From Haloplanus aerogenes (GTDB taxonomy: Archaea; Halobacteriota; Halobacteria; Halobacteriales; Haloferacaceae), in NCBI RefSeq assembly GCF_003856835.1, contig NZ_CP034145.1:2666001-2730000 (forward strand): 64,000 bases of DNA, read 5' to 3'. The position numbers and the translations under genes were made by a program. Numbering within the stretch: position 1 is the stretch's first letter; each line of letters opens with the position of its first letter. A model generated the notes under the pieces. That model searched no databases. It worked only from the letters and a program-made list of their open reading frames with translations, and was not told the origin of the DNA. Below are positions 6,020 through 43,939 of the stretch, in pieces.

Positions 6020-6426
6020 GCCGACAGCAACTCGGCGCCCTCGGCCGACAGTTCGACCGTCACGTCCTGCCGGGTCTGCTCGCTCATCTGGTCGATGTTG
6101 CGCGTGAGGACTTCGAGGATATCCTTCGGTTCGGGGTAGACGAGGAAGTTGCCGTCGTCGTCCTCCATCACCAGTTGCGTATCGGAGAGGGAGATCTGAT
6201 CCCCCTCGATGCTGGCGACGACGACCGGGAGCGCCTCGGCGCCGCCGGGGTCGCCCTCCGTGACCATCGTGATGTGGAGTTCGTCGAGGCCGATGAGGTC
6301 CTTGTACTCCCGGACGCGACGCGCACAGCGGACCATATCACGCGTCACGGCCGTCTTCTGCTCGTTGCCGTGTTCCCCTTCGTGGCAGAGCTTGCACACC
6401 CGGAGTTCCATGCGCATAGTACACAC
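6016..6426 (-). CDS. conserved small acidic protein with CxxC motif
   Basis: The 136-residue soluble protein has an N-terminal CKLCHEGEHG motif that could bind a metal, followed by a mixed alpha/beta acidic region. The listed start is GTG; an ATG three codons inside (6417) gives the product MRMELRVCKLC and is equally plausible. Its end overlaps the lipoprotein gene tail-to-tail. I do not recognise a named family. The Cys-rich start followed by a compact domain suggests a small metal-binding regulatory or chaperone-like protein, but this is inference. Confidence 0.55.
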   Translation of the reverse strand: MCTMRMELRVCKLCHEGEHGNEQKTAVTRDMVRCARRVREYKDLIGLDELHITMVTEGDPGGAEALPVVVASIEGDQISLSDTQLVMEDDDGNFLVYPEPKDILEVLTRNIDQMSEQTRQDVTVELSAEGAELLSA

Positions 6427-6518
6427 CTAACGGGGAGGGAGGTGGTTAAATCCTCGGCGGCCGTCACAGCAACACGTCGCCGTTCCCGAGGCCGGCTGCT
6501 GACGACGAATATCAGAGC

Positions 6519-6529
6519 TGATATATTTG
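6519..6529 (+). promoter_or_regulatory. TATA-like element upstream of the GHKL/DUF3883 gene
   Basis: An AT-rich stretch (gatatattt) lies about 40 bases upstream of the chosen ATG at 6568, in a locally AT-richer patch that contrasts with the surrounding sequence. Spacing fits an archaeal TATA box with a short leader. This also argues against the much longer upstream reading frame being the true start. Confidence 0.4.
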
Positions 6530-6567
6530 TGAAAAGTCATTTAACTCCGATCCTGCTCCGTAGGTCC

Positions 6568-9500
6568 ATGACACGGGGCCTCCAGAAAGAGGGGTGGGAG
6601 GAGTGGCTACGCGAACAGCGATCGAAGATGGAAGATGTCTACCGGCGTGATCCGGATCGGATATTTTCGGACTACACTCGCGAGGCCGAAGCCGTTCGAG
6701 GCTACTCCGGGCGTGGAATGCTCGAACTGATACAGAACGCCGACGACGCCGGCCGAGACTACGCAGAGCCCGTGGACCTGCTGATCGAATTGACCGATCA
6801 AGGGCTGTTCGTCGCGAACACGGGCGCTGCGTTCACACCGGAGGGCGTGAGTTCTCTTATATTGAGTGACAACAGCCCAAAACAATTCCGGAAGGACTGC
6901 ATCGGCTACAAGGGTCTGGGATTCCGTTCGGTTCTGAACTGGGCATCACGTGTCGTCGTTCATAGCGGCGATGTTTCGATCGGCTTCTCCGAGGCGTTCG
7001 CGTCTGCGCAACTCGAACGTCTTCGGGAAGACGACGAGATAGATGCGAAGGCGAGACGGTTCGAAAAACGGGGGATTGCGACCCCGATCGCGACGTTGAG
7101 TACGCCGCATCTGCTGTCGAACGGCAAGGTCGACGATCCGAAGTTGAGAGAGGTGTACAACCGAGGGTGTCAGCTCAGAACGAACGGCTACGACACTGTC
7201 ATCGGCGTTCCGCTTCCGGAAGCCGAACAGCGGGCAAAGGTACAGCGAGAGATCGACGCGCTGTTCGAGGAGATCACGCTCTTCCTTCGCAATATTGGTC
7301 GAATCCGGATTCGAAGCGACGAGCGCGACGAAGAGTGGCGAGTGAATCGAACCGAGAACGCGGTGACGATCCACCGAGAAGACGGAGACTCGGTTAGCTG
7401 GCAACTGTTCGAGGAATCCGGAGAGATCCCGTCGGCGTACCGGCGACCGTCACAGACGGAGGACAAGTACGAAATAAAGATCGCCGTACCTGAGGATCTC
7501 GACAGGCTCGAATCGACATCGAACCTATTCGTCTTCTTCCCGACGAAGGTCTCCTTCCCGTTTCCGATGTTGGCGCACGCGACGTTCGAAGTGACTGAGA
7601 ACCGAGACCACCTGACGAACAGCGAGACGAACCGATTCGTCGCGACTAAACTGGCGTCGTTGATGGTGAACGCTGCCGAGGAAAAGAAGTCGATCGAAGA
7701 TCCGTGGGCGGCGCTTCGGACAGTTTCCTCGAGCGGCGAGATCGGAAGCACGCTCGAAGAACTCGAGTCGATCGACGGGAGCGACACGTTCGACGAGATG
7801 CTCCGGATGGAGGCGTCGTCTCGAGCGCTGATTCCCGTGCAGAATGGGACGTTCACGACGCCCGACTGTGCCTACCGGATCAGTGGAAACTTCGACGACT
7901 TGCTGCACGGCGAGCGGTTCGACGATATCTGTCTCCACGTCAACAACGCGGAGGTGGACACCCAACTCGAGAAACTGGATGTCCAGTCCATCGGATACGA
8001 CGACCTGAAACGGCGGATCAACGAGATAGCGAGCGACCTCTCGCTGGAGACACGGGCCACACTCATCGCGAGACTCGTCGACGAGGATATCATCGAAGAC
8101 GAGTCTCCACCCGCTCTGTTGATCGACTCGGACCGAGCCACCGTCGACGCTGGAACGACCGTGTTTCTCCCACCGCAAGATGACGCCGTCACTCTCCCCG
8201 AGTGGATTCCACAGCGGATTCTCCACCCCGAACTCGCGGCCGAGTTACGGGAACGGTGGAACCTGAGAGCCATTCGAGACCTCCGGATGAAACTGAGTGC
8301 ATTCGGCGTCAGGGAGTACAACCTCTCGGGGCTGGTCCAGTCCGTCTCCGCGGAGGCGAACAGACGAGTCAAGGACGACCCCGATGCCGAACTCGAGTGG
8401 CGTATGGAGATGCTGGAGGTGCTATGGAAGCTGTATCAACTCGGCGTAGACGGGGTCAATCTGTCGAATATCCCGATCGAGATACCGACGCGGACGGGAA
8501 CAGTCGAGCGGGCCGACTCGCTCTACCTCACCGCGGAGTATCCAAACGGGGACCTCGTGGAACAACTGTACGGACCGGTCGATCCAAGTTCGTTCGTGGC
8601 TGATCCCGAACAACTACCATTCAGTGACGATCGAGAGCGACTGGAAGACTTTCTGTGTTGGCTGGGCGTCGCTCACGAACCGAGAATCGAGCGCGTGCGA
8701 CCCGACGACCCGGCGTACCACGACTACGTGGTCGATTCGCTCGAGTATCCCGCGAGGTTCGAAGCACTCACCAAGGAATCCGCGGAGCGCGTGAGCGGAA
8801 CGCGGTCCCGGCTCACGGAGGTACAGACGGTCGATCGCCTCGCCGAGGTTCTCACCCACGCCGACCCACACGCCATCCTCGCGTGGTTGACGACGATCGG
8901 CCGGACGCTCGACGAGTGGCGGCAGGAGGGCGACATCGACGGAGCCTTCGAAATCAAGCCACAGTACAAGCAGTACTGGCGAACCCTGAGCGGACAGTCG
9001 ATCCCATCTCACCCGCTGTGGCTCCTCAAGACATCGGCGTGGCTCCCGACCGAGAACGGCGAACCACAGCCCCCACAAACGTGTTCGACGGCCGAGTTCG
9101 CACGGGAGATCTCACCACTCATCGGCTACCCGACCATCGAGATGGCTCATCCACTCCTCGAGGGGTCCGGAATCGACGAAACGGCGGTCGTGACTACCCT
9201 CCGAAAGATCGGCGTGACGAGCACGATTACCGATCTCTCTTGGGATGCGTTCTACCGAATACTGTCGGAGTTGCCGGAGCGTGATCCCGCCGGAGAGGTG
9301 GCGCCACGCGTATATCGAACCCTCTACGCGAATAAGGACGGGACGCCACCAGCCGAACTCTACGGTGAGTTCGTCGACGGTGGCGAGATGCTCGGAATCG
9401 ACGACGGAACATCCAACTACTACCCAGTCACCGAACTTCGGTACGCCGACAGCGAATCAATTCCGACACCGATCACCGACGAATATCCGCTATTAGCCCT

Positions 9501-10758
9501 CGACAAACGACGCGGCGTCTCGAAGGTGGAACAGCTATTCGGTGTGAAAGGACTCTCCACCAGCAGTATCGACATCTCGAATATCAGGGACGAACCCCAC
9601 CCGCAGAAGGAGAACTTCGAGGCATGGATAGACGACCTGAAGCCATTCGTGTACGCGCTTCGCGTCGACAGCGACGACGACCTCACGGAGCGAAACACGA
9701 TCCGTGACCTCGAGATCGTCCTCTGTCGGTCGGTGACTGCGACGGCCTCGGTCGGCGGTGACGAGTTCGAAATCACCCTGTCCGAAGGTGAGTTCCTGCC
9801 GGACGGGTCGAGGGTCTTTTTGATCCCCGAATCGGTCGACAGCTATCAGCGACTCCGAGACGACCGACTAGCTCGACTGATCGGCGACGTCTTCGCGGAC
9901 ATCTTGGACGTCGACATCGGACGCGAAATACTCTACCTAACGACCGCGAACGACAGGGTAGACCGACTCGGTGTCTTGCTGGGTGACGACGCTGCCACCG
10001 AGCGACTACGAAACGCGGTGGAGCGACTGGACCGAGAGGTCAGGAAAGACACGTTCCCGGAACCGACAGCCCCCGATCCGGAGCCGGTGCCGGAACCAGA
10101 ACAGACACAGAACGTCACGGAAGAACAGGAGACGGAGGCTGGCGACGACGGCGATAACCGACAGGCTGAGCCGAACCGGATAACGGGAATTACTGCCGAG
10201 GAAGGTCAACTGGACCCAATATCTGGACAAACCATCTCGATCAGGCGAGTCGGGACGGGAACACAGGAGCAGTCCTCAGGCGGCTCGCGTCGAACGGCGA
10301 ATCCGGGCCGTGCAGAGACCATCGCGGCCCGGTTCGAGGAACACGAGAATCGGTTCCCACTCCCCGTCGCACACATCCAAGGCAATCGGGGTTACGGCTG
10401 TGATGTGCTGAGCTTCGAGAGCCAAGAGGATCGATCGGCGTTCAAATCCGATCCAGACGTTCAGCTGATCGACAGACATATCGAGGTCAAAGGGAGTACG
10501 AGCCGGAAAGGAGCAGTCACGCTCTCGGATAACGAACTCGCGAAGGCTCGCGAGCAAGGTGACGACTACTACCTGTACCGGGTGTACGAGGGAAGCACCG
10601 ATTCCGAGGGATTCGAACTGGTTATCCTCCGGAATCCCCTCGCCCACGGCGACGCAGTCGAGACGAAAGTGGAGGTGAATCCACATCGTACGGACCAGGG
10701 CACCCTCTACCGTCTCGATGTCACTGCCGACGGCGACGACGAAGAGCGGACGAAATAA
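6568..10758 (+). CDS. large GHKL ATPase / DUF3883 (NO VEIN C-terminal-like) protein, probable defence gene
   Basis: The protein has 1396 residues from ATG 6568. The open frame runs upstream to 6175, but that part lies antisense to the previous gene and the TATA-like element sits just before 6568. Residues about 40-130 form a sacsin/Hsp90-like GHKL ATPase: ELIQNADDA (N box, 53-61), ANTGAAF (G1, 83-89) and IGYKGLGFRSV (G2, 112-122). Residues about 1254-1380 match DUF3883, with GYGCDVLSFE and HIEVKGSTS, a spacing like the D...ExK core of PD-(D/E)XK nucleases. The middle is long and unassigned. Such HATPase-DUF3883 fusions are common in prokaryotic defence islands. Here the gene stands alone between housekeeping genes, and its base composition is visibly lower in GC than its neighbours, which suggests horizontal acquisition. 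Defence function is inferred. Confidence 0.75.
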   Translation: MTRGLQKEGWEEWLREQRSKMEDVYRRDPDRIFSDYTREAEAVRGYSGRGMLELIQNADDAGRDYAEPVDLLIELTDQGLFVANTGAAFTPEGVSSLILSDNSPKQFRKDCIGYKGLGFRSVLNWASRVVVHSGDVSIGFSEAFASAQLERLREDDEIDAKARRFEKRGIATPIATLSTPHLLSNGKVDDPKLREVYNRGCQLRTNGYDTVIGVPLPEAEQRAKVQREIDALFEEITLFLRNIGRIRIRSDERDEEWRVNRTENAVTIHREDGDSVSWQLFEESGEIPSAYRRPSQTEDKYEIKIAVPEDLDRLESTSNLFVFFPTKVSFPFPMLAHATFEVTENRDHLTNSETNRFVATKLASLMVNAAEEKKSIEDPWAALRTVSSSGEIGSTLEELESIDGSDTFDEMLRMEASSRALIPVQNGTFTTPDCAYRISGNFDDLLHGERFDDICLHVNNAEVDTQLEKLDVQSIGYDDLKRRINEIASDLSLETRATLIARLVDEDIIEDESPPALLIDSDRATVDAGTTVFLPPQDDAVTLPEWIPQRILHPELAAELRERWNLRAIRDLRMKLSAFGVREYNLSGLVQSVSAEANRRVKDDPDAELEWRMEMLEVLWKLYQLGVDGVNLSNIPIEIPTRTGTVERADSLYLTAEYPNGDLVEQLYGPVDPSSFVADPEQLPFSDDRERLEDFLCWLGVAHEPRIERVRPDDPAYHDYVVDSLEYPARFEALTKESAERVSGTRSRLTEVQTVDRLAEVLTHADPHAILAWLTTIGRTLDEWRQEGDIDGAFEIKPQYKQYWRTLSGQSIPSHPLWLLKTSAWLPTENGEPQPPQTCSTAEFAREISPLIGYPTIEMAHPLLEGSGIDETAVVTTLRKIGVTSTITDLSWDAFYRILSELPERDPAGEVAPRVYRTLYANKDGTPPAELYGEFVDGGEMLGIDDGTSNYYPVTELRYADSESIPTPITDEYPLLALDKRRGVSKVEQLFGVKGLSTSSIDISNIRDEPHPQKENFEAWIDDLKPFVYALRVDSDDDLTERNTIRDLEIVLCRSVTATASVGGDEFEITLSEGEFLPDGSRVFLIPESVDSYQRLRDDRLARLIGDVFADILDVDIGREILYLTTANDRVDRLGVLLGDDAATERLRNAVERLDREVRKDTFPEPTAPDPEPVPEPEQTQNVTEEQETEAGDDGDNRQAEPNRITGITAEEGQLDPISGQTISIRRVGTGTQEQSSGGSRRTANPGRAETIAARFEEHENRFPLPVAHIQGNRGYGCDVLSFESQEDRSAFKSDPDVQLIDRHIEVKGSTSRKGAVTLSDNELAKAREQGDDYYLYRVYEGSTDSEGFELVILRNPLAHGDAVETKVEVNPHRTDQGTLYRLDVTADGDDEERTK

Positions 10759-36289: not shown

Positions 36290-36368
36290 TAGGGATTATC
36301 GTAACTGTCCAGAGAGTCTCGCTGGACCGCCCCGGCGAGACTCTCTGATGACTTCCGAGAACCCCTAT
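36289..36368. repeat. 80-base inverted-repeat element (MITE-like or bidirectional terminator)
   Basis: Outer arms atagggattatcg and its imperfect complement at 36356-36368 (cgagaacccctat) enclose a perfect 12-base stem: agagagtctcgc at 36311-36322 pairs with gcgagactctct at 36335-36346 around a 12-base loop. The element fills the gap between two convergent genes and its left arm includes the last base of the stop codon of the regulator gene. The nested structure with terminal repeats suggests a miniature element; termination function is also possible. Confidence 0.5.
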
Positions 36369-36371
36369 GAC

Positions 36372-39251: not shown

Positions 39252-39402
39252 TTTTCCGACCGTAGTGAGGAACTGTGGAGAGGGGAATTCGAACCACGCG
39301 AGACGAGCAGCGAGGAACCTCCGGTTCCTCGGGCAGTCGGCGCTTCGCGCCGACGACGAAGCGAGTCTCGCAATCGGGGTCGACCCCCCATCGGAGCATC
39401 CT
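39252..39402. repeat. structured spacer ending in a decayed copy of the tRNA-Glu 3' end
   Basis: Directly after the tRNA, GCGAGAC (39298-39304) and GTCTCGC (39365-39371) bracket two perfect 8-base hairpins: GAGGAACC/GGTTCCTC (39312-39330) and GTCGGCGC/GCGCCGAC (39336-39354), each with a three-base loop. At 39377-39400 there is a degenerate copy of the tRNA T arm and acceptor end, including the identical block tcggagcat (39391-39399) and a following ccgac shared with the tRNA flank. It looks like an attachment-site duplication. Confidence 0.6.
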
Positions 39403-39422
39403 CCGACGATTTTTCGGGGTGA

Positions 39423-42400
39423 TTAGATCACCTGTGTGTCAACGATCTCTGGGACGATTTCCGCGTCCACGAGTGGCGTGATGTTGAGTTCGACGCCGTG
39501 TTTGTGGTTCGGCTGATATCCGTCGGTCGTAATCTCGGAGAGCGCACGCTCTTCCCAGTCGGACGGTATCGCCCGTGTGATCTCCTCACACGCGTCGTCG
39601 ATCTCCGCAGCGAGTCGTTTGTACTCGTCGACGCCGCTCGCCAGTTGAGAGACGAGCTGCTGACACTCGTTGGACTCCTGGCCACCGAGTTGGGACTGAT
39701 CAGCCTCCTCGAACTGCTCGTAATAGTACGTTGTGAAGAGAATGCCGTTGCTCGCGTAGTGTGCGGACCCGATGAGGTCGTCGTAATACGCGAAGAAGTC
39801 ATAGAGATGCGGTTCGATCGGCGTCTCCCCGTCTTCGGTGTATGCCTCAAACGCATCTTCGAGGTCTTCGAGTGCATCCAGCCACTCCTCGCGATGTTCG
39901 TCGACCGTGTCGTAGAACGAGGGACTGAACAGCTCCGCCATATCGACGTCGTCGCAGTTCGCGAGCTCGTCGAGAACATCGAGACGGTGGGCGGTCCGCT
40001 CACGGAATTCGGCGACGCGGTCGACCATCGAACCGGCGAGCTCCCGCTCTTCAGCGGGCCACTCACGCGGAGCGGACTGTGCGAGTGCTGTGAAGCGTTC
40101 TTCGAGGACAGAAATCTGTTCGAGACCGCTCTCACAACGCGCGTACTCCTCGGCAGCCACGGCTTGCTCGCTGGCGGAGAGGGAACTGTCGCTCCGTCGG
40201 CGGTTTGCGACCGAGCGTCGCTCCCGCAGCAGTGCTTTCCGTGGTTCTAGATAGCGGTTCGTCAGCCGGTCGAACAGCCCGCCGTCCATCTGGTGGTAGT
40301 CGACGAGACACGCGAAACCCTCGCCCTCGGGGTCGGAAACGAGGCGCTCGCTCGTCAACTGCCAGAGGATCGGCGTTCGGTCGAACGTCGAGATGTGGTA
40401 GTCGAAGAGATCGTCTTCGAGCCACGTGCGGAGATTCGGGTACGCTTCCTCGTCTGCTGTCTTCGAGCCGAGTACGCGATCCACTTCTGCGAGACGATCG
40501 GCCGCATCGTCTCCCCAGACGCGTTCGAACTCGGTCTCTATTCGGGCCAGGAGGTTATCCTCGCCGTCGACACGGGAAATCGGGACGATGCCGTCATCGT
40601 CGTCGTGGATCACCTGAAGTGCGAAGTGAAGGAGCAGGTCTTTCACCTGCTTCGGGAACTCTTCGGAGGGTTCACTGATCGATTCCGGATCGTACGTCTC
40701 ACGTTCGCGCGGGTCTTCGTTCGTGCGGAGTGCGATCTCTTGAAGCACCGTCTCACACTGATCGTCGCTGATATCGAAGCAGTCGAAGACGGCATCGTCG
40801 ATGGCCTCCGCACAGGCTTGGAGGTTGGAGTCGACAGATTCGAGATGTCGTGCTGCTGCGGTTCCAAGGTCTTCTATAGACGCTGACTCGTCGACTGTAC
40901 GAGTAGGCTCCACCAGCGTGAGATCGTCGCGAAGTTCTCGGTGAGGGTGATCGTACTGTGGAAGCGATTCTCCAGCCCCGAGAACGTCGAGCAGTATTGG
41001 CCCGTCGTAGTGTGGCGAATTGAAATCGTACTGCCGCTTCGAGACGAGATATCCAACTGCCTCACGAGCGAGGGCCTCGAGTTGCTGTTGGGTCTCGAGT
41101 TCGCTCATCCACGGTACTTTCGAGACCAAGCCAATCTCCCACATACGTTCGGTCGTCTGCGCAAGCATCAGGTAGGTGAAAAGATGGCTGTTCGTGTACG
41201 ACAGCGCGTTCCAGATACATCGATCCGGGATGAGGACCGATCCTTTGTGGCTGAAGATCGAACTCGAATGCAGATACCCGAATCGACGGCCGGACTCCTT
41301 GGCGACCGTGTAGGACAGTGCTTCACTGAAATAGTTATCAACGTTCTGTACCCGTCCGCCCGGTTGGCTCTCCATCTCCCGAGGGGCCCAATTCACGGAG
41401 TGGGTCACACGTGGAAGGAGCCACGCATCTTCGCCTCCCTTGGCGAACGGGACCCACGAAGCGTCGCCGTTGACCTCCCAAAACTTTCGGACGAAGCGTC
41501 CGTCATCGCCGGTACAAAGGCCAGCACTAACTTCTCCAAGACTATCGCCGTCGACGTGACCTTTGTCGGCATCGAGGAAACTCTGCGAGTCGTAAAGGGA
41601 TCGGAGTGACCGTGGGACCCAGTAGGAGAGCGGCATCCCGGGGATCAGTTCGAACTCGTCGATATCTCTGGTATAAATGCGTTGTACCCCATCATCGACG
41701 GGATCGACAAAGGCGGATCTGAGGAACGCGTGTTCTTTCGCGCTTTTGTCGACGTCTTCGAGGCGGATGAACGTTCCTTCCTGTCTCCCCGAAACACCGG
41801 AGCGAACGACCGTCCCCGCAGTCCGAACTGTCGCGTTGTCGAGTATATCGATGCCGTACTCGGCGAGGAAGTCGAACGTTCCGCGCCCACCGACGAAGTC
41901 CTCTCGGAAATCACGGAACGACGTGAGAAACATGAACGATCGAGGGACCAGCATGCCAATCCGTCCGTTGGTCCGTACGAATCGATCGCAGGCCTCGAAG
42001 AAATTGATGTAGTATTCTGTCTTGTAATCGAAATGTTCCTCGACGTACTCCTGAACGTCGGCAGGCATCCGACCACCCGACCCGTACGGCGGGTTCATCA
42101 GTGCAACATCGTAGTCTTGAGTCAAGACCACGAGCAGGTTGAGAAAGCTCCGCAGATTCTGTTCGCCGAACGAGTCCGAGGTCCGCTCTTCGACGGCCGT
42201 CTCGAGACGTTTGAGGAATCCGTTGAGTGTCTTCGGAGCGTCTCCTCCCCACCCCATAATGTCGGTCTGGCCGCTCTCGAACTCCGCATCGAGTGTGCCC
42301 TGCACGTCCAGTAGACTGCCCAGTGCTTCCGTCGTTTGAAAGTCGTCGATTACGTCGTCGAGCGCGTCGCGCACATCCGTTCCGTCACCGGTGATCGTAT

Positions 42401-43616
42401 CGAGGACACCGATAGCCTCTTCGACATCTGCGACGCGAGCGTCTGCGGTGACGATGCCGAGACTCGGCATCTCGAATCCCGTGTTACCTTCGGATTCGGC
42501 CCGAGTACGGGCTTTCAGGTAGAGGTTGAACGCGGAGAGCTGGCAGGAGCGCAGATCGATGTCGACCCCGTAGAGATTGTGTTTCAGAATTTGTTCGGGA
42601 ACCTCTCCACGGTCGAGGTCGGTTTCGGCCCACCAGATGCGCTCGAGAACGTCGAACGCGTAGAGGAGGAAGTGGCCACTCCCACAGGCTGGATCGATGA
42701 TGCGAAGTTCCCGTGGATGATCGAAGTCGGGTGCGTCGTGGTTGTCGTCGTCCGGGATCAGGTACGTGCAGAGTTCGGGGACACTCGGAGCGTCTTCGGG
42801 TGTGACCAGGCGGTTTTTCCGCTCGTCCGGTGAGAGTGCCTTCGCGTCCGGGACAGTGTCCGCCTGACCAGTCGCTTCGAGATAGAGCTTCCCGAGGCTG
42901 TTATCGGTTAGCATTCGAACGACCCAGTGAGGCGTGTAGAACTGATTAGCAGGCCCGACGTCCTCCGGCTCGAGCGTGTTCTTTGCGTCGAGGGCTTCAA
43001 CGACGGGGCGATTGTAATACTCGTAGATCCACCCGAGGACGTCGTCTGCTCGCCACACCGCGTCGGGAATGTCGTCGAGCATCCTGCAGAGTTCCTCGAA
43101 CGTGTCGTCGTCGGGATCGATCAGGCTGTAGGTGGACGAACGATCGAAGAGGATCTCGATTTCGTCGGCGAGTTCGTCACAGGAATTGTGATACGCCGCG
43201 AGAATCGCTTCGTCTTCCAGCAAAAACTCCTCGTGGACGAGCGTCTCGGCAGCGGGTGTCAGGCCGTTCTCCTTGAAGACGGTGACTTCCTCGTCGATGA
43301 AGTCACGAACCTCCATACACCGCAGCGCCGCGAGTCGATTGACGATAGTATACCCAACGCCCGCAATATACTTCTCGAACGCCTCTTCCCAGGTGTGACC
43401 GTCGGCCCCCTCTATCTCGATGGCTTCGACGAGCTGTTCGATTTCTTCGTCTAGTGGCTCCCCGTCTTCTGGCTCGTCGTCCAGTCCGTGTTGCGTGAGT
43501 TGGAACCGCACGTTGTCTTCGACACGGCTCCGAAGCTCCTCGACGACATCTTCGAGATGCTCTCGTTCGGTCTTGTCCAGCTGCGCCTTCTGTCGAGAGA
43601 GAGAATTATGTTCCAT
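39423..43616 (-). CDS. pglX: PglX-type (BREX-like) adenine-specific DNA methyltransferase, solitary
   Basis: The protein has 1397 residues from ATG 43616 (MEHNSLSRQK); the frame is open 45 codons further upstream but those codons lack gene-like features. After an N-terminal helical region comes QFYTPHWVVRMLTDNSLG (225-242), then methyltransferase motif I DPACGSGHF (308-316), LYGVDIDLRS, and motif IV NPPYGSGG (508-514). Long C-terminal helical and coiled regions follow, as in PglX of BREX systems, especially the haloarchaeal type. No brxC, pglZ, brxA/B or brxL gene is nearby, so it is an orphan or a stand-alone type IIG-like enzyme. The base composition is visibly lower in GC than flanking genes. 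Its position beside a tRNA scar points to horizontal gain. I see no separate nuclease motif. Confidence 0.85.
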   Translation of the reverse strand: MEHNSLSRQKAQLDKTEREHLEDVVEELRSRVEDNVRFQLTQHGLDDEPEDGEPLDEEIEQLVEAIEIEGADGHTWEEAFEKYIAGVGYTIVNRLAALRCMEVRDFIDEEVTVFKENGLTPAAETLVHEEFLLEDEAILAAYHNSCDELADEIEILFDRSSTYSLIDPDDDTFEELCRMLDDIPDAVWRADDVLGWIYEYYNRPVVEALDAKNTLEPEDVGPANQFYTPHWVVRMLTDNSLGKLYLEATGQADTVPDAKALSPDERKNRLVTPEDAPSVPELCTYLIPDDDNHDAPDFDHPRELRIIDPACGSGHFLLYAFDVLERIWWAETDLDRGEVPEQILKHNLYGVDIDLRSCQLSAFNLYLKARTRAESEGNTGFEMPSLGIVTADARVADVEEAIGVLDTITGDGTDVRDALDDVIDDFQTTEALGSLLDVQGTLDAEFESGQTDIMGWGGDAPKTLNGFLKRLETAVEERTSDSFGEQNLRSFLNLLVVLTQDYDVALMNPPYGSGGRMPADVQEYVEEHFDYKTEYYINFFEACDRFVRTNGRIGMLVPRSFMFLTSFRDFREDFVGGRGTFDFLAEYGIDILDNATVRTAGTVVRSGVSGRQEGTFIRLEDVDKSAKEHAFLRSAFVDPVDDGVQRIYTRDIDEFELIPGMPLSYWVPRSLRSLYDSQSFLDADKGHVDGDSLGEVSAGLCTGDDGRFVRKFWEVNGDASWVPFAKGGEDAWLLPRVTHSVNWAPREMESQPGGRVQNVDNYFSEALSYTVAKESGRRFGYLHSSSIFSHKGSVLIPDRCIWNALSYTNSHLFTYLMLAQTTERMWEIGLVSKVPWMSELETQQQLEALAREAVGYLVSKRQYDFNSPHYDGPILLDVLGAGESLPQYDHPHRELRDDLTLVEPTRTVDESASIEDLGTAAARHLESVDSNLQACAEAIDDAVFDCFDISDDQCETVLQEIALRTNEDPRERETYDPESISEPSEEFPKQVKDLLLHFALQVIHDDDDGIVPISRVDGEDNLLARIETEFERVWGDDAADRLAEVDRVLGSKTADEEAYPNLRTWLEDDLFDYHISTFDRTPILWQLTSERLVSDPEGEGFACLVDYHQMDGGLFDRLTNRYLEPRKALLRERRSVANRRRSDSSLSASEQAVAAEEYARCESGLEQISVLEERFTALAQSAPREWPAEERELAGSMVDRVAEFRERTAHRLDVLDELANCDDVDMAELFSPSFYDTVDEHREEWLDALEDLEDAFEAYTEDGETPIEPHLYDFFAYYDDLIGSAHYASNGILFTTYYYEQFEEADQSQLGGQESNECQQLVSQLASGVDEYKRLAAEIDDACEEITRAIPSDWEERALSEITTDGYQPNHKHGVELNITPLVDAEIVPEIVDTQVI

Positions 43617-43764
43617 GCGAAGATGTCCTGTATGCACCGTCCCACTGACAGCAGTGACTTCAATGTTGCCGACGCCGGCGTCGAGGAACGCTTCGAGCGG
43701 GAGGCAGACGAACTGGCAGAGAGAGTCCCGAGGAGACGACCGCTTCGCCACAACGAGGGAGGGC

Positions 43765-43920: not shown

Positions 43921-43939
43921 CGGCTACAACTGCGCTCGG

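What the first reader, a model, noticed from the sequence alone, without database searches (positions are those of the whole stretch)
39423..43616. Orphan PglX-type methyltransferase beside a tRNA gene
A full-length PglX with intact SAM-binding (DPACGSG) and NPPY motifs occurs without any other BREX gene in the flanking 20 kb on either side. Orphan PglX could be a stand-alone type IIG-like restriction-modification enzyme, a remnant BREX, or a component that works in trans with the GHKL-DUF3883 protein about 29 kb away.
Basis: partly seen in the sequence, partly recalled or inferred. Interest (0 to 1): 0.6.

Follow-up and report, generated by a model that had tools for sequence, protein, structure and literature searches.

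The report
Second, dispersed BREX-5 specificity methyltransferase gene
A salt-loving archaeon carries, beside a tRNA gene where foreign DNA often inserts, an extra copy of the methyltransferase that tells its BREX virus-defence system which DNA word to read; it probably gives the complete BREX-5 system 1.63 million bases away a second target word, so it is not a true orphan.

Summary
An intact 1,397-codon pglX lies at 39423-43616 (-), with DPACGSG and NPPY, 172 bp from tRNA-Glu(CTC), and there is no other BREX gene in the window. At genome scale it is not an orphan. The same chromosome has a complete BREX-5 operon with its own intact pglX 1.63 Mb away. The two PglX proteins are 56% identical: 74-84% over the first 200 residues but about 33% in the target-recognition region. 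Displaced intact pglX genes recur (12 in 10 genomes). They do not form one clade, and half lie within 2 kb of a tRNA gene. In 392 order-level genomes, 46 of 47 with full-length BREX-5 PglX also have BREX-5 PglZ; the exception keeps BrxA/B/C. In four genomes the BREX-5 operon has lost pglX and brxHII but keeps brxB, brxC and pglZ, and the only intact PglX is displaced. Characterised BREX PglX proteins cannot methylate alone (literature). Best explanation: a horizontally acquired second specificity subunit that works in trans with the BREX-5 core (about 0.7). Stand-alone type IIG action and a partnership with the GHKL protein (a Tiamat TmtA) are not supported. No methylation or expression data were available.

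The parts
39423..43616 (-). pglX: BREX-5 type adenine-specific methyltransferase and specificity subunit, 1,397 aa, displaced from the BREX-5 operon (the ORF stays open to a GTG at 43751)
42675..42695 (-). SAM-binding motif I, DPACGSG (residues 308-314)
42084..42095 (-). catalytic motif IV, NPPY (residues 508-511)
40617..41669 (-). target-recognition region (about residues 650-1000), the part that diverges from the in-operon PglX (28-42% identity against 74-84% over the first 200 residues); boundaries inferred from the identity profile and BrxX domains
   Evidence: domain order after PMC11842806
39177..39251 (+). tRNA-Glu(CTC), an integration hotspot in this genus
39376..39407 (+). degenerate second copy of the tRNA-Glu 3' end plus 9 bp (24 of 32 identical), a likely integration scar
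   Evidence: 0 of 1000 shuffles as good; similar second copies in relatives
43937..43937 (.). synteny breakpoint: the block from here rightward is conserved in four congeners, but there it does not adjoin the tRNA-Glu site

Best explanation
The gene encodes a second PglX for the resident BREX-5 system. The distant operon would supply the BrxA/BrxB/BrxC/BrxC/PglZ complex and BrxHII. The displaced PglX would dock through its conserved N-terminal and C-terminal parts and bring a different target-recognition region, so the cell would methylate, and check incoming DNA at, a second non-palindromic adenine motif. The gene was probably gained horizontally and settled at a tRNA-gene integration hotspot. 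Shown: an intact gene under purifying selection, a complete BREX-5 with its own pglX in the same genome, a divergent TRD, recurrence of displaced copies, near-total co-occurrence with the BREX-5 core, and relatives whose only intact PglX is displaced. Inferred: assembly in trans, methylation of a second motif, and a role in restriction.
For: 1) The complete BREX-5 operon in the same chromosome was identified gene by gene. 2) The window PglX and the operon PglX are 74-84% identical over residues 1-200, but about 33% in the TRD. 3) PglX proteins of the same TRD type (TRD type 33) are the sole PglX of complete BREX-5 operons elsewhere, e.g. Halocatena pleomorpha L087, so this variant is a genuine BREX-5 subunit. 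4) Many BREX-5 operons carry two pglX genes flanking pglZ with 30-39% TRD identity, so using two specificities is normal for this system. 5) Displaced intact PglX occurs in G000, G370, G392 (x2), G393, G397, G467 (x2), G328, G166, G231 and Halorussus ruber. PglZ_5 is present in all of these except H. ruber, which keeps BrxA/BrxC/BrxB/BrxC. In 392 genomes, 46 of 47 with full-length PglX have PglZ_5, against 10 of 345 others. 6) In G370, G397, G166 and G231 the operon pglX and brxHII are reduced to scraps or lost while brxB, brxC and pglZ stay, and the displaced PglX is intact. 7) PglX alone does not methylate in E. coli HS or Acinetobacter; it needs BrxB, BrxC and PglZ, and BrxA in Acinetobacter (PMC11842806, PMC9122589). 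PglX complementation in trans works (PMC12707154). 8) dN/dS is about 0.12-0.17.
Against: There are no expression, interaction or methylation data. H. ruber keeps a displaced PglX with no PglZ_5 found in its genome. Co-occurrence could partly reflect joint gain of BREX loci followed by partial loss. Different TRDs within a genome are expected by chance (only about 4% of random pairs exceed 55% identity), so the difference shows a second specificity but not selection for complementarity. No promoter upstream was demonstrated. The literature on dependence comes from BREX-1, not BREX-5. dS is near saturation.
Confidence: 0.7

Rival explanations
1. It is a stand-alone methyltransferase (orphan epigenetic or protective MTase, or a type IIG-like enzyme) that needs no BREX protein.
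For: Catalytic motifs are intact. H. ruber has a displaced PglX with no PglZ_5 found. Streptomyces PglX, which lacks the flanking domains, methylates in vitro according to PMC12707154.
Against: No nuclease domain was found. The full BrxX-type N- and C-terminal domains are present. Characterised PglX proteins of this architecture are inactive alone (PMC11842806, PMC9122589). 46 of 47 full-length PglX genomes carry PglZ_5.
Confidence: 0.12
2. It is inert cargo: a recently acquired, unexpressed or unused pglX that has not yet decayed.
For: Low GC relative to its flanks (58% against 68%), a tRNA hotspot location and a synteny breakpoint suggest foreign origin. pglX genes are often broken even inside operons.
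Against: The 1,397-codon frame is intact with dN/dS about 0.12-0.17. Displaced copies are intact in ten genomes, and four of these have no other intact PglX but still hold the BREX-5 core with PglZ.
Confidence: 0.14
3. It is a spare or donor copy: a reservoir of TRD sequence or a backup for an operon pglX prone to disruption, used by recombination and not directly.
For: Operon pglX is interrupted by inserts or deleted in several genomes. N-terminal parts of paired PglX are unusually alike in dual-pglX operons, as recombination could produce.
Against: In G000 the two genes differ along the whole length (56% identity) with no near-identical tract, so no recent exchange is visible.
Confidence: 0.04

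Closest known systems
BREX-5 PglX (NF033454) in haloarchaeal BREX-5 operons, including operons with two pglX genes
   Same: Same family at 2376 bits, same domain order and motifs; same TRD type as the sole PglX of other complete BREX-5 operons
   Different: Encoded 1.63 Mb from the operon, single gene beside a tRNA, in addition to the operon's own pglX
E. coli and Salmonella BrxX/PglX (BREX-1; 9ewz, 8zek, 8c45)
   Same: Aligned over residues 73-1178 by sequence and best structural match over most of the modelled part
   Different: About 18-20% identity; BREX-1 uses BrxL, not BrxHII; encoded inside the operon
[quoted passage not shown]
   Same: Works-like analogy: a separately encoded specificity part redirects a shared enzyme core (own knowledge; not tested here)
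   Different: PglX carries methyltransferase and TRD in one chain; unrelated as a system; no nuclease
Type IIG/IIL enzymes (Eco57I, MmeI, BpuSI)
   Same: Related methyltransferase domain (Pfam Eco57I hit)
   Different: No nuclease domain; N- and C-terminal domains of the BREX type

Membership tests
BREX-5 PglX | Match above the NCBIfam BREX-5 PglX cut-off over the full length | tested here: met
   2376 bits against cut-off 900, model 2-1404 of 1404
BREX-5 PglX | SAM motif and NPPY intact | tested here: met
BREX-5 PglX | N-terminal domain, MTase, TRD and C-terminal domain as in BrxX, without a nuclease | tested here: met
   the model covers residues 1-1190 at moderate confidence, pLDDT 68.7
BREX-5 system at this locus | brxA, brxB, brxC (x2), pglZ and brxHII next to pglX | tested here: not met
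   no other BREX gene in the window
BREX-5 system in this genome | Complete brxA-brxC-brxB-brxC-pglX-pglZ-brxHII operon | tested here: met
   own pglX intact, 1,439 aa
BREX-5 PglX | Methylates adenine in a non-palindromic motif together with BrxB/BrxC/PglZ | not testable with these tools
   needs native DNA and mutants
Type IIG/IIL restriction enzyme | Nuclease domain fused to the methyltransferase | tested here: not met
   no nuclease family in Pfam, NCBIfam or PADLOC scans; best folds are BrxX
Partner of the GHKL-DUF3883 protein | GHKL protein is a BREX or PglX-associated component | tested here: not met
   it matches Tiamat TmtA at 1037 bits

The most novel reading that the evidence does not exclude
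Haloarchaeal BREX-5 is a hub-and-cassette system: one BrxABC-PglZ core serves several dispersed, mobile PglX specificity genes that land at tRNA hotspots. In some lineages (G370, G397, G166, G231) the system has become split and reduced to the set that suffices for methylation in BREX-1: the core operon without pglX and brxHII plus a remote pglX.
Probability: 0.4. Interest if true: 0.68.

Novelty: new variant of a known kind. Interest (0 to 1): 0.5.

Why it matters
BREX is usually treated as one operon with one built-in specificity subunit. If dispersed PglX genes share one core, BREX specificity can be gained gene by gene, operon-based surveys undercount BREX specificities, and apparent orphan pglX genes are working parts. 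The haloarchaeal genomes make this directly testable by methylation calling, because some have two or three PglX genes and others have only a displaced one.

Tried and rejected
Remnant BREX at this site: rejected, no other BREX fragment in the window. Reading the 'TAG inside' of the second PglX as a broken operon gene: rejected, the stop lies outside the gene and the 1,439-aa ORF is intact. Halorussus ruber as a true orphan: weakened, since BrxA/BrxC/BrxB/BrxC are there while PglZ and BrxHII are not found. The ~365-bit PglX relatives in genomes without PglZ_5 as an orphan family (possibly the HG5 group of PMC10609329): rejected as orphans, three loci examined have BrxC-like neighbours, two of them also PglZ-like. 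att repeats on both sides of pglX: not found; only a degenerate copy between the tRNA and pglX. One clade of displaced PglX: rejected, they fall in at least six places on the tree. Within-genome TRD difference as proof of selection: rejected, random pairs differ just as often.

Full report
What is there. The window belongs to a haloarchaeal chromosome (G000:C1:2666001-2730000). The minus-strand gene at 39423-43616 encodes a 1,397-aa PglX; the ORF is open back to a GTG at 43751, but homologues begin at the ATG at 43616. It matches BREX-5 PglX over the full model (2376 bits), with DPACGSG and NPPY intact. By sequence and by fold (model of residues 1-1190, mean pLDDT 68.7) its nearest solved relatives are the BrxX/PglX proteins of E. 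coli and Salmonella. No nuclease domain was found. Nothing else of BREX lies in the window.

The genome is not BREX-less. One PglZ and a second PglX mark a complete BREX-5 operon about 1.63 Mb away: BrxA, BrxC, BrxB, a second BrxC, PglX (1,439 aa, intact), PglZ and BrxHII. The window gene is therefore an extra PglX. The two PglX proteins are 56% identical. Identity is 74-84% across the first 200 residues, 28-42% through the target-recognition region, and rises to 72% near residue 1100. The published BrxX structures assign specificity to that region (PMC11842806, PMC11341690), and the N-terminal domain has been proposed as an interface to other BREX proteins (PMC12839542).

How common it is. 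In 392 genomes drawn from the order, 47 carry a full-length BREX-5 PglX and 46 of these also carry BREX-5 PglZ; only 10 of the other 345 do (the full-length list was compiled by hand). Displaced intact PglX genes, with no BREX gene in the 7-10 kb examined on either side, were found in the window genome and in G370, G392 (two), G393, G397, G467 = Haloferacaceae archaeon XH8 (two, one with a 33-aa PglZ scrap beside it), G328 = Halalkalirubrum salinum, G166 = Haladaptatus sp. DYF46, G231 = Halorubrum sp. 48-1-W, and Halorussus ruber. PglZ_5 is present in every one of these except H. ruber, and H. ruber still has BrxA, both BrxC and BrxB. Among the genomes of the window's genus examined, five have PglX and all five have PglZ_5; the seven others had no PglX match and no PglZ_5 match.

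Split systems. In G370, G397, G166 and G231 the BREX-5 operon keeps brxC, brxB, brxC and pglZ, but its pglX and brxHII are reduced to scraps or missing, and the only intact PglX is displaced. In G166 and G231 the pglX scrap is an in-frame fusion of the N-terminal and C-terminal ends (135 and 120 aa); in G231 brxHII is likewise an in-frame N-C fusion. No true BrxHII was found elsewhere in these genomes; G231 and G397 have only DrmD-like helicases of about 565-575 bits or less. In Acinetobacter BREX-1, methylation needs PglX, BrxA, BrxB, BrxC and PglZ but not the effector BrxL (PMC9122589). The split genomes thus retain what should suffice for methylation. This is an inference; brxA was not covered in G370 and G166.

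Origin. The maximum-likelihood tree scatters displaced PglX among in-operon PglX, in at least six places. The window protein groups with displaced copies of G370, G392 and G467 and with several in-operon proteins. Three of 12 displaced genes lie within 200 bp of a tRNA gene and six within 2 kb; with about 50 tRNA genes in 3.5 Mb (an assumed number) the chance is about 4e-5 and 2e-5. The 12 are not fully independent. H. ruber's displaced pglX sits at the same tRNA-Glu(CTC) site, near a relative of the same SDR gene, in the opposite orientation. G370 and G397 share a tRNA-Arg(CCG) site but carry PglX of different clades. In congeners the tRNA-Glu(CTC) gene is followed by one or two partial copies of its 3' end, the signature of repeated integration; the window has one degenerate copy at 39376-39407. 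The block to the right of 43937 is conserved in four congeners, but not next to the tRNA-Glu.

Specificity. Clustering the target-recognition region at 55% identity gives 41 types among 66 PglX proteins. The window's type is the largest, with 12 members. It is displaced in four genomes and in-operon in eight, including Halocatena pleomorpha, where it is the sole PglX of a complete operon. Operons with two pglX genes flanking pglZ are frequent; their two copies are 79-93% identical over the first 200 residues and 30-39% in the TRD. Two specificities per BREX-5 are therefore ordinary; what is unusual is that one is encoded far away.

Mechanism. The best reading is a second specificity subunit that uses the remote core in trans. 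Dependence on the core is inferred from BREX-1 genetics, from co-occurrence, and from the split genomes. It has not been shown for BREX-5. H. ruber, without a detectable PglZ_5, is the main case that does not fit.

Novelty. The protein is a member of a known family. A dispersed, trans-encoded pglX in addition to a complete operon, and recurrent split systems, were not described in the papers I could search; the founding BREX survey is not held in the library, and from memory it reported frequent pglX disruptions and duplications. I therefore rate it a new variant of a known kind.

Noticed in passing
window 6175-10758 (+): The GHKL-DUF3883 protein matches the Tiamat defence protein TmtA (PDLC03964, 1037 bits); GC about 60%, lower than most of the window.
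   Followed up: partly
L047:8463-8870, L049:8367-8729 and L049:10870-11170: In-frame minigenes that join the N- and C-terminal ends of pglX (two genomes) and of brxHII (one genome), with pglZ intact between; why internal in-frame deletions recur in both genes is unexplained.
   Followed up: partly
L193, L194, L196: In three otherwise well-preserved BREX-5 loci (G163, G109, G119) pglX is split by inserts of about 1.1 to 1.6 kb; identity of the inserts not examined.
   Followed up: no
L044/L045, L056, L057, L099, L101, L109, L122, L133, L167, L177: A second BREX-5 architecture: pglX-brxHII diverging from brxA-brxC-brxB-brxC-pglZ, with more distant core proteins (roughly 31-49% identity).
   Followed up: partly
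L130 (Salinivenus lutea, NCRC01000015.1): A complete BREX-5-like operon in a record named as a halophilic bacterium, suggesting exchange between domains; L108 (a Nealsonbacteria MAG contig) looks haloarchaeal and may be misbinned.
   Followed up: no
window 36300-36370: A roughly 70-bp sequence with many dispersed copies in congeneric genomes, perhaps an intergenic repeat element.
   Followed up: no
L077 (G370:C7:1096001-1112000): The tRNA-Glu(CTC) site in G370 carries an insertion of about 11 kb that separates a truncated tRNA copy from the intact gene; contents not examined.
   Followed up: no
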